A model generated the notes under the pieces. It made no database searches. It was not told the origin of the DNA and saw nothing but the letters and a program-made list of their open reading frames with translations. Positions 932 to 1,819 of a DNA stretch of 64,000 nt are shown piece by piece. Origin of the DNA: Kordia sp. TARA_039_SRF (lineage in GTDB: Bacteria > Bacteroidota > Bacteroidia > Flavobacteriales > Flavobacteriaceae). Position numbers and translations under genes: made by a program. Within the stretch, counting starts at the first letter, position 1. Each line of letters starts with the position of its first letter. The DNA is taken from positions 62,001-126,000 of the forward strand of contig SMNH02000001.1 of the NCBI GenBank assembly GCA_006383075.2, written 5' to 3'.

Positions 932-967
932 CATAAAAAATGCTCCAAAATTAACCTTTGGAGCATT
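932..967 (-). terminator. Rho-independent terminator of the RiPP precursor genes
   Basis: An 11-bp perfect stem (positions 939-949 with 957-967, 7-nt loop) is followed on the minus strand by a run of T. It sits just after the stop codon of the last precursor gene and before the asparaginase gene. Confidence 0.8.
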
Positions 968-997: not shown

Positions 998-1231
998 TTA
1001 TATTGGACAAGGAATGTCAATTGATTGTTGACAACCTAAATCCCAAGACGGCTCACATTCGCAAGCGGTATATAGTTCACTGTACCAAGTACAATCTCTG
1101 ATATTGCGCGTAAAGACACAATCTCTAATATTTCTAGTTAATGGAACAGGAATAGGTTCTTGCGCACCACCACTCAATCTGGAGATGGATGCTTTTTTAA
1201 GTTTTAATGTTTTTAGATTCTTTTTTTTCAT
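998..1231 (-). CDS. Cys-rich RiPP precursor peptide 1 (class I lanthipeptide-like, GG leader)
   Basis: 77-residue precursor, probably cut after Gly21-Gly22 and modified post-translationally. The Lys-rich leader (MKKKNLKTLKLKKASISRLSGG) is of the Bacteroidota GG-leader natural product type, often annotated as class I lanthipeptide. The core has six Cys (38, 47, 57, 59, 67, 75). Residues 32-38 and 41-47 are both TRNIRDC, an internal 9-residue duplication. From Cys59 the core is two octads, CEPSWDLG and CQQSIDIP, closed by Cys75. WYSELYTACE is shared with precursor 3. It is the last of three tandem genes with 18-nt gaps, followed by a terminator. No LanB/LanC, protease or transporter gene is nearby, so the product type is inferred from leader and Cys/Ser/Thr content only. 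Confidence 0.8.
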   Translation of the reverse strand: MKKKNLKTLKLKKASISRLSGGAQEPIPVPLTRNIRDCVFTRNIRDCTWYSELYTACECEPSWDLGCQQSIDIPCPI

Positions 1232-1249
1232 GATTATATGTGTTTAAAG

Positions 1250-1510
1250 TTATGCTTCACAAGGAATATCAATAGATAATTGACAAGGGTTTAAGAACGA
1301 TTGATTGCAATCAAAATCTTGTGTTGGCGGACAACATGCCGTGTTCAATTCACTAATCCAAGTTGTAGTACATTGCGTGTTATTGATAGTAAATGCACAC
1401 TCTCTTATTTGTCTTGTTAACTCAATTGGAGTTGGTGCGCCACCGTTTAGTTTTGAAACAGATGCTTTTTTGAGTACTAATGATTTAAGTTTTAGATTCT
1501 TTTTTTTCAT
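1250..1510 (-). CDS. Cys-rich RiPP precursor peptide 2 (class I lanthipeptide-like, GG leader)
   Basis: 86-residue precursor, the middle gene of three. The leader ends at Gly23-Gly24 (LKKASVSKLNGG). The core contains seven Cys (38, 47, 59, 60, 68, 76, 84). From Cys60 there are three consecutive 8-residue units, CPPTQDFD, CNQSFLNP and CQLSIDIP, closed by Cys84; each has Ser or Thr at its fourth position. TRQIREC near residue 32 matches the TRNIRDC of precursor 1, and SELNTAC matches SELYTAC in the other two. The cores are clearly homologous but differ in the number of Cys octads. Confidence 0.8.
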   Translation of the reverse strand: MKKKNLKLKSLVLKKASVSKLNGGAPTPIELTRQIRECAFTINNTQCTTTWISELNTACCPPTQDFDCNQSFLNPCQLSIDIPCEA

Positions 1511-1528
1511 GATTGGTAGTTTTTAATA

Positions 1529-1819
1529 TTAAGCTTCACAGATATAGTTTGAATCTGGTGAACATCCTGGTTGTTTTGTGTATTCGCATGGGAAATCAAT
1601 GGATGCGCCACAATTTCCATCCCAAGACGGATCACATTCACAAGCAGTATACAATTCGCTATACCACGTACATGTTTTTACAAATTGACTTGTGCAATTT
1701 CCACCACCTACAGTACATGAAATATGTGATGCTACGGCTGCGCCACCTTGCACACTGTCGAGCTTAGAAATCTGTTTTTTGCCTAAGTCTAGCTTTTTTC
1801 CGAATTTCTTTTTTTTCAT
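1529..1819 (-). CDS. Cys-rich RiPP precursor peptide 3 (class I lanthipeptide-like, GG leader)
   Basis: 96-residue precursor, first gene of the set. The leader ends at Gly25-Gly26 (ISKLDSVQGG) and nine Cys follow (35, 42, 50, 60, 62, 70, 78, 86, 94). The last five are spaced exactly eight residues apart: CDPSWDGN, CGASIDFP, CEYTKQPG, CSPDSNYI and a closing Cys94. The middle segment TWYSELYTACE is shared with precursor 1. The start is fixed by ATG plus the MKKK leader shared by all three. The RiPP class cannot be settled because no maturation enzyme lies in the window; a lanthipeptide is the best guess. Confidence 0.8.
   Translation of the reverse strand: MKKKKFGKKLDLGKKQISKLDSVQGGAAVASHISCTVGGGNCTSQFVKTCTWYSELYTACECDPSWDGNCGASIDFPCEYTKQPGCSPDSNYICEA

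What the first reader, a model, noticed from the sequence alone, without database searches (positions are those of the whole stretch)
998..1819. RiPP cores built from a variable number of Cys octads
After a conserved W-x-SEL-x-TAC segment, all three precursors end in perfect 8-residue Cys units, C-x2-[S/T]-x4, closed by a final Cys: two units in precursor 1 (Cys59, 67, 75), three in precursor 2 (Cys60, 68, 76, 84), four in precursor 3 (Cys62, 70, 78, 86, 94; the last unit has Asp then Ser). Ser or Thr at a fixed place five residues before the next Cys would give a ladder of identical thioether rings. The genes differ by repeat number, as if the ladder grows by unit duplication. I know of no described lanthipeptide with this exact octad ladder.
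Basis: partly seen in the sequence, partly recalled or inferred. Interest (0 to 1): 0.82.

Follow-up and report, generated by a model that had tools for sequence, protein, structure and literature searches.

The report
Kordia ladder-ring lanthipeptide precursors
Three small genes in a marine bacterium appear to encode peptides stitched into a row of small sulfur-bridged rings, and they belong to a scattered set of about a hundred such peptides that seem to share one set of modifying enzymes.

Summary
In detail: precursors at 998-1231, 1250-1510 and 1529-1819 (- strand), Cys where stated. The locus lies between the same neighbours in 11 of 11 genomes of its genus (Kordia); a profile search of 138 other relatives found no member. 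The 30 locus members hold 86 ladder units: 72 octads, 14 heptads, 58 perfect C-x2-[ST]-x4. Ser/Thr stands five residues before the next Cys in 72 of 86 units, including all 14 heptads, as a ring to the downstream Cys requires. A private Ser/Thr lies 4-6 residues before 207 of 215 core Cys (shuffles 102 +/- 6). All three leaders read LxLxKx5L plus GG, published for Bacteroidetes class I lanthipeptides. The only LanB found, its separate elimination protein and a LanC lie about 212 kb away. The operon is one of 75 sites holding 106 such precursors. Best reading: class I lanthipeptides modified in trans by one LanB/LanC, a class I analogue of prochlorosins. Ladder growth by unit duplication is not supported. 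No chemistry was tested.

The parts
998..1231 (-). precursor 1 (77 aa; leader 1-22 ending GG, core 55 aa, 6 Cys, two octads)
   Evidence: lant_leader_L1a 14.2 bits, below the 22-bit cut-off
1250..1510 (-). precursor 2 (86 aa; leader 1-24 ending GG, core 62 aa, 7 Cys, three octads)
   Evidence: lant_leader_L1a 10.6 bits, below cut-off
1529..1819 (-). precursor 3 (96 aa; leader 1-26 ending GG, core 70 aa, 9 Cys, four octads, the last irregular)
   Evidence: lant_leader_L1a 25 bits, above the 22-bit cut-off
1007..1057 (-). octad ladder of precursor 1 (Cys59-Cys75)
   Evidence: positions worked out; units
1259..1333 (-). octad ladder of precursor 2 (Cys60-Cys84)
   Evidence: positions worked out; units
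1538..1636 (-). octad ladder of precursor 3 (Cys62-Cys94)
   Evidence: positions worked out; units
939..967 (-). intrinsic-terminator-like hairpin (12 pairs, then a T run) downstream of precursor 1; suggests one three-gene operon
   Evidence: 2 terminator-like sites in 850-2050, the other on the + strand; 0.5 expected in shuffles
1091..1141 (-). direct repeat inside precursor 1, copies 27 nt apart (TRNIRDC-VF-TRNIRDC), upstream of the ladder
   Evidence: family D4, 79% over 24 nt

Best explanation
The three genes form one operon of class I lanthipeptide precursors that are modified in trans. Inferred steps: the LxLxKx5L leader is recognised by the genome's one LanB, about 212 kb away. LanB glutamylates Ser/Thr in the core, the separate 302-aa protein eliminates glutamate to give Dha/Dhb, and LanC adds each Cys to a dehydro residue 4-6 positions N-terminal to it. 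That gives a C-terminal row of two to four small (Me)Lan rings (Ser/Thr-x4-Cys), preceded by further rings at the upstream Cys. A C39-peptidase ABC transporter then cuts after GG and exports the peptide. Shown here: genes, leader motif, GG site, enzyme genes, conservation and Ser/Thr-Cys spacing. Not shown: modification, ring connectivity, export, activity. The operon is one of 75 sites with 106 such precursors, so one LanB/LanC pair would serve a prochlorosin-like repertoire. Peptides acting on, or signalling to, neighbouring organisms are the likeliest use; that is a guess.
For: (1) All three leaders, and 30 of 30 locus members, read L-x-L-x-K-x5-L, with GG; PMC7268733 (passages) reports this leader, often with GG and a C39 protease, for class I LanAs of Bacteroidetes. 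(2) Among 138 relatives outside the genus the leader model at E<=0.01 hits 8 of 14 genomes with LanB and 2 of 124 without (Fisher p 5e-8); at E<=0.1, 10 of 14 and 11 of 124 (p 5e-7). In five of them (G028, G091, G093, G106, G125) a leader match lies within 2.5 kb of a LanB match (coordinates; the list is cut). (3) One LanB match in each of 11 of 11 genomes of the genus; in G000 it stands beside a PF14028 protein and a LanC, with a C39 transporter 5-9 kb away. The LanB keeps the R-x-TPFGLF stretch of NisB and the LanC the WCYG and CHG stretches; that these are catalytic or zinc-binding is recalled. (4) Ladder family: 207 of 215 core Cys have a private Ser/Thr at -4 to -6 (shuffle mean 102), 215 of 215 at -2 to -8 (157). 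(5) Ser/Thr at -5 in 72 of 86 units, all 14 heptads included; 13 more, each the last of its ladder, have it at -4; one has neither. (6) 103 other G000 precursors: 474 of 499 Cys matched at -2 to -8 against 379 +/- 8 in shuffles. (7) Odd Cys numbers: 7 and 9 in precursors 2 and 3, 49 of 106 in the set.
Against: No modifying enzyme is near the operon. Precursors 1 and 2 score below the curated leader cut-off. The exact leader motif is in 75 of 106 dispersed precursors; a hydrophobic version is in 103. The 30 members are related, so the matching statistic is not 30 independent tests, and the 14 heptads (8 distinct) may stem from a few deletions. In the other 103 precursors, shuffling within each Cys-Cys gap removes the -5 signal (z 1.2); what remains is C-x-[ST] (z 6.8), which ring size does not explain. 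The 'reversed' control is biased, because cores end near a Cys, so it is not used. G000 is a 27-contig assembly of about 96% completeness, so a second LanB could be missing there (though each relative also has one). No transcript, mass or activity data.
Confidence: 0.7

Rival explanations
1. Unmodified or disulfide-bonded Cys-rich secreted peptides that only share the leader for export through a C39 transporter.
For: No enzyme nearby; GG leaders serve other exported peptides too (recalled); five C39 matches in the genome; no chemistry known.
Against: Odd Cys numbers; one Ser/Thr allotted to nearly each Cys; Ser/Thr spacing kept to the downstream Cys when the gap shortens; the leader model goes with LanB across relatives.
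Confidence: 0.13
2. Lanthipeptides made by another enzyme of the same genome: the class II LanM (C5), the LanC with HopA1-like and kinase-like proteins (C3, class V-like), or the lone LanC (C1:445624).
For: All are present; the lone LanC has a leader-type precursor directly upstream.
Against: The LanM and the C3 set have unlike peptide genes of their own next to them; the leader model goes with LanB.
Confidence: 0.08
3. Radical-SAM thioether peptides (ranthipeptide or sactipeptide type) or another thiol chemistry.
For: PMC11118758 (section 7 read) reports rSAM-modified peptides as well as lanthipeptides in Kordia.
Against: G000 has two SPASM matches at E<=0.01: one is the grasp-with-spasm maturase with two grasp-type peptides near it, the other best resembles a tungsten-cofactor maturase far below cut-off; neither lies near the operon.
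Confidence: 0.04
4. A sub-case of the best explanation: class I lanthipeptides, but with ring connectivity other than a simple ladder (overlapping or reversed rings, or only some rings closed).
For: Each window core has spare Ser/Thr (7 for 6 Cys, 12 for 7, 14 for 9); the SELxTACxC part allows crossed rings; the last units of many ladders break the -5 rule.
Against: S/T-x4-C in 72 of 86 units across octads and heptads makes the local ring the simplest choice.
Confidence: 0.25

Closest known systems
Bacteroidetes class I lanthipeptides (leader LxLxKx5L-GG; NCBIfam NF038153; pinensins, per PMC7268733 the only ones isolated from the phylum by 2020)
   Same: Leader motif, GG site, C39 transporter, LanB with separate elimination protein, LanC.
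   Different: Precursors mostly not clustered with the enzymes; octad ladder core; about 100 precursors for one LanB. The survey PMC7268733 (passages) looked within seven genes of the LanC protein.
Prochlorosins (picocyanobacteria)
   Same: One promiscuous synthetase, many precursors, many of them far from it, with conserved leader and variable cores.
   Different: Prochlorosins: Nif11-type leader and ProcM, class II (PMC10783134, start of abstract in the listing; PMC7268733, passages). Here: class I LanB plus LanC and an unrelated leader.
Kordia algicida OT-1 type 1 lantibiotic cluster (PMC3091789, passages)
   Same: A LanB and LanC with one LanA beside them in the same genus; presumably the same locus (not compared).
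   Different: The passages name one LanA. Genome G010, whose contig length equals that of the K. algicida OT-1 record, gives 97 leader-model matches at E<=10 and holds one ladder precursor.
Chryseobacterium and Runella class I lanthipeptides expressed in E. coli (PMC9993889, abstract and passages)
   Same: Bacteroidota enzymes shown to dehydrate (seven-fold) and cyclise (three rings) their precursors.
   Different: Precursor and enzymes from one gene cluster; three rings; no octad ladder in the passages seen.

Membership tests
Class I lanthipeptide | LanB (glutamylation plus elimination) and LanC in the producer | tested here: met
   LanB PF04738 503 bits, PF14028 protein 245 bits, LanC PF05147 156 bits at C1:275299-279679
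Class I lanthipeptide | leader motif of the Bacteroidetes members (LxLxKx5L, GG) | tested here: met
   exact motif in all three, GG read
Class I lanthipeptide | curated leader model NF038153 over its cut-off | tested here: inconclusive
   passed by precursor 3 only (25 bits), not by 1 and 2 (14.2, 10.6; cut-off 22)
Class I lanthipeptide | precursor encoded beside LanB/LanC | tested here: not met
   about 212 kb apart; 2 of 106 recovered precursors lie within 10 kb of lanBC. Usual but not obligatory, so taken as a difference and not as exclusion.
Class I lanthipeptide | Ser/Thr donor available for each Cys | tested here: met
   6 of 6, 7 of 7, 9 of 9 Cys in the three window cores at -2 to -8 (6, 6, 9 at -4 to -6)
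Class I lanthipeptide | lanthionine/methyllanthionine in the product | not testable with these tools
   needs mass spectrometry
Prochlorosin | Nif11-type leader and LanM (ProcM) synthetase | tested here: not met
   leader is of the LxLxKx5L type; the LanM at C5:126767 has an unlike peptide gene of its own. The Nif11 model itself was not run.
Prochlorosin | one synthetase, many dispersed precursors | tested here: inconclusive
   one LanB and 106 precursors at 75 sites; that LanB acts on them is not shown
SPASM radical-SAM peptide | cognate SPASM maturase beside the precursor | tested here: not met
   two SPASM matches in G000, neither near the operon

The most novel reading that the evidence does not exclude
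Kordia runs the class I counterpart of the prochlorosin system: a single LanB/LanC pair modifies about a hundred precursors scattered over the genome, and one conserved operon uses a modular core in which each eight-residue module makes one ring, so that paralogues display ladders of one to four rings.
Probability: 0.5. Interest if true: 0.78.

Novelty: new variant of a known kind. Interest (0 to 1): 0.62.

Why it matters
If right, a promiscuous dehydratase of the tRNA-dependent class I type would handle a natural library of about 100 very different cores. The well-known one-enzyme, many-substrates lanthipeptide case, the prochlorosins, is class II. The octad ladder would be a natural modular scaffold: ring number set by module number. 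Both points are directly testable in E. coli with a system already published for Bacteroidota LanB enzymes (PMC9993889).

Tried and rejected
Growth by unit duplication: a first control (adjacent octads 9.07 of 24 nt, random units from different genomes 10.9) was unfair, because the random pairs include homologous units. The mended control compares unit i with unit i+1 within a gene (9.07, 29 pairs) and between genes with the same number of units (9.88, sd 2.6, 257 pairs); units at the same place in different genes share 14.95 (279 pairs). No excess within genes. The repeat finder saw no 24-nt spaced repeat in the ladders, only the repeat upstream of the ladder in precursor 1. An ancient duplication is not excluded.

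A genome-wide fixed ring size: whole-core shuffles gave Ser/Thr enrichment at -5 (z 4.6 in 101 precursors), but shuffling within Cys-Cys gaps removed it (z 1.2, 103 precursors). So outside the ladder family only the allotment of Ser/Thr to gaps is supported.

Leader motif count: the pattern labelled LxLxKxxIx[L] (34 of 106) was badly written; one search gives 75 of 106 for the exact published motif.

Mobile-element origin: precursor 3 (the only one queried) has no match in plasmids or phages (tblastn, E<=0.01).

Weak matches outside the genus (3 of 138 genomes: G012, G028, G087): the frame in G012 holds two stops, and the peptides printed for G087 (L049) and G028 (L050) lack the W-x-SEL segment; not counted as members. 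Also not counted: other leader-type peptides at the locus without SE[LA]-x2-[AQ]C, and matches elsewhere in the Kordia genomes (38 candidates scored per genome, list cut).

Rows dropped: of 117 leader matches in G000 (150 of 172 candidates scored), 6 were not recovered with a stop codon (1 fetched but cut by the contig end, 5 not fetched), and 6 of the 111 recovered do not start with Met; precursor 1, not in that list, was added by hand, giving 106. Counts for the genus (38-49) are floors, since 49 candidates were scored per genome; with 150 scored, three genomes give 117, 97 and 113 at E<=10. At that lax limit 5 of 14 control genomes also match, none over the cut-off.

Full report
What is there. 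A terminator-like hairpin follows the last gene (939-967), so they are probably one operon. The neighbours, an isoaspartyl-peptidase-like gene (3-842) and a 3-hydroxyanthranilate-dioxygenase-like gene (2025-2570), are named from my own reading of the sequences. No LanB or LanC match falls in or near the window.

Where it is found. A profile of the three finds relatives in 11 of 11 genomes of the genus. A pattern scan of genome contigs gave 15 stretches, of which seven encode a relative, all titled Kordia. In all 11 genomes the genes lie between the same neighbours (for one side in the window). By a filter on start, GG and SE[LA]-x2-[AQ]C I collected 30 members, one to four per genome; 28 have W-x-SEL and 30 have the exact leader motif. 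In the other 138 relatives there were three weak matches, looked at and set aside. Precursor 3 had no tblastn match in plasmids or phages.

The ladder. The 30 members hold 86 Cys-to-Cys units: 72 of eight residues, 14 of seven; 58 are perfect C-x2-[ST]-x4. Two members have one unit, ten have two, eight have three and ten have four. In the heptads (8 distinct) the Ser/Thr is two residues after the upstream Cys but still five before the downstream one. Over all units, 72 of 86 have Ser/Thr at -5; 13 have it at -4 instead, and each of these is the last unit of its ladder; one has neither. This is what a ring from Ser/Thr to the next Cys predicts, and a disulfide would not need it. It rests on few independent events, since paralogues share ancestry.

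Donors for all Cys. With Cys positions kept and other core residues shuffled, the ladder family has a private Ser/Thr at -4 to -6 for 207 of 215 Cys (shuffle mean 102, sd 5.9; 0 of 300 shuffles reach it) and at -2 to -8 for 215 of 215 (157, sd 5.3).

The enzyme question. G000 has one LanB match (assembly of 27 contigs, about 96% complete). Beside it stand a separate PF14028 elimination protein and a LanC, and 5-9 kb away a C39-peptidase ABC transporter with an HlyD-like partner. The LanB aligns with NisB over query residues 38-742 of 751 and the LanC with LanC-like proteins of known structure, WCYG and CHG stretches included. The locus is about 212 kb from the operon. Each of the 11 genomes has exactly one LanB match.

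The repertoire. The published leader model gives 117 matches at E<=10 in G000. I recovered 111 ORFs; 105 start with Met and hold Cys, and precursor 1, absent from that list, makes 106. Of these 101 have GG at residues 19-40, 104 have at least as many core Ser/Thr as Cys, 49 have an odd number of Cys, and 75 have the exact L-x-L-x-K-x5-L. They lie at 75 sites more than 2 kb apart on 17 contigs; two lie within 10 kb of lanBC. Two other genomes of the genus give 97 and 113 matches. Among the 138 other relatives the model goes with LanB: at E<=0.01, 8 of 14 genomes with LanB and 2 of 124 without; at E<=0.1, 10 of 14 and 11 of 124. In five of them a leader match lies within 2.5 kb of a LanB match. 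This supports LanB as the partner of the leader, in cis elsewhere and mostly in trans in Kordia. For 103 non-ladder precursors, 474 of 499 Cys have a private Ser/Thr at -2 to -8 (379 in shuffles). Against a simple view, a shuffle within Cys-Cys gaps leaves no -5 signal and a strong C-x-[ST] signal, which I cannot explain.

Other enzymes considered. A class II LanM, and a LanC with HopA1-like and kinase-like neighbours, are present with peptide genes of their own. A lone LanC at C1:445624 has a leader-type precursor upstream. Two SPASM genes are present, one a grasp-with-spasm maturase with grasp-type peptides near it.

Duplication. Adjacent octads of one gene are no more alike than the same unit pair taken from different genes. 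The alignment of 19 of the 30 members shows precursor 2 with a whole extra unit between parts that match precursor 1, so units come and go, but recent tandem duplication is not seen in the ladder.

In print. PMC7268733 (passages) gives the LxLxKx5L leader, often with GG, for Bacteroidetes class I LanAs and limits its search to seven genes from the LanC protein. PMC3091789 (passages) names one LanB, LanC and LanA in K. algicida. PMC11118758 (section 7 read; passages) names Kordia as RiPP-rich, reports up to 176 precursors in a Bacteroidota genome with enzymes sought within ten genes, and notes LanC with a nucleotidyltransferase around Kordia precursors. So the abundance is known; a single trans-acting LanB and the octad ladder were not seen in my searches (listings, and the passages named), which cover open-access papers only and cannot match sequence patterns; supplements were not read. 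PMC7477175 and PMC10734526 (passages) mention a Kordia lanthipeptide cluster and Kordia RiPP clusters without these features in the passages seen. PMC12328550 (passages) showed only references on Bacteroidetes.

Verdict. A real, conserved, apparently Kordia-specific family of probable class I lanthipeptide precursors with a modular ring ladder, part of a dispersed repertoire. New variant of a known kind; the chemistry is inferred.

Noticed in passing
L010/L014 (G000 C21:14336 and 14641): Two neighbouring precursors with another ladder. The first has five C-P-x-T-x2 hexads in a row (Thr three residues before the next Cys) followed by C-P-S units; the second has mixed C-P units of five to eight residues. 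A second ring-ladder design in the same genome.
   Followed up: partly
L077:12752-13624 (G000 C3:483251-484123): A 290-aa protein with many repeats such as GPTGxxGC beside HopA1-like, kinase-like and LanC genes: possibly a very long class V-type lanthipeptide precursor.
   Followed up: partly
L075:7352-8911 (G000 C1:445351-446910): A leader-type precursor directly upstream of a lone LanC without a dehydratase beside it.
   Followed up: no
L076:7739-9718 (G000 C1:577738-579717): A 534-aa protein with a weak partial LanC match next to a leader-type precursor with a GGTGG-rich core.
   Followed up: no
G000 repertoire: Ser/Thr strongly enriched two residues after Cys (C-x-[ST]) and depleted one residue after; no explanation found.
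   Followed up: partly
L110:1003 and L113:896 (other Kordia genomes): Dispersed precursors that share WYSELY[TS]AC-x-C with the ladder family but lack octads, as if the W-x-SEL module had been recombined onto other cores.
   Followed up: no
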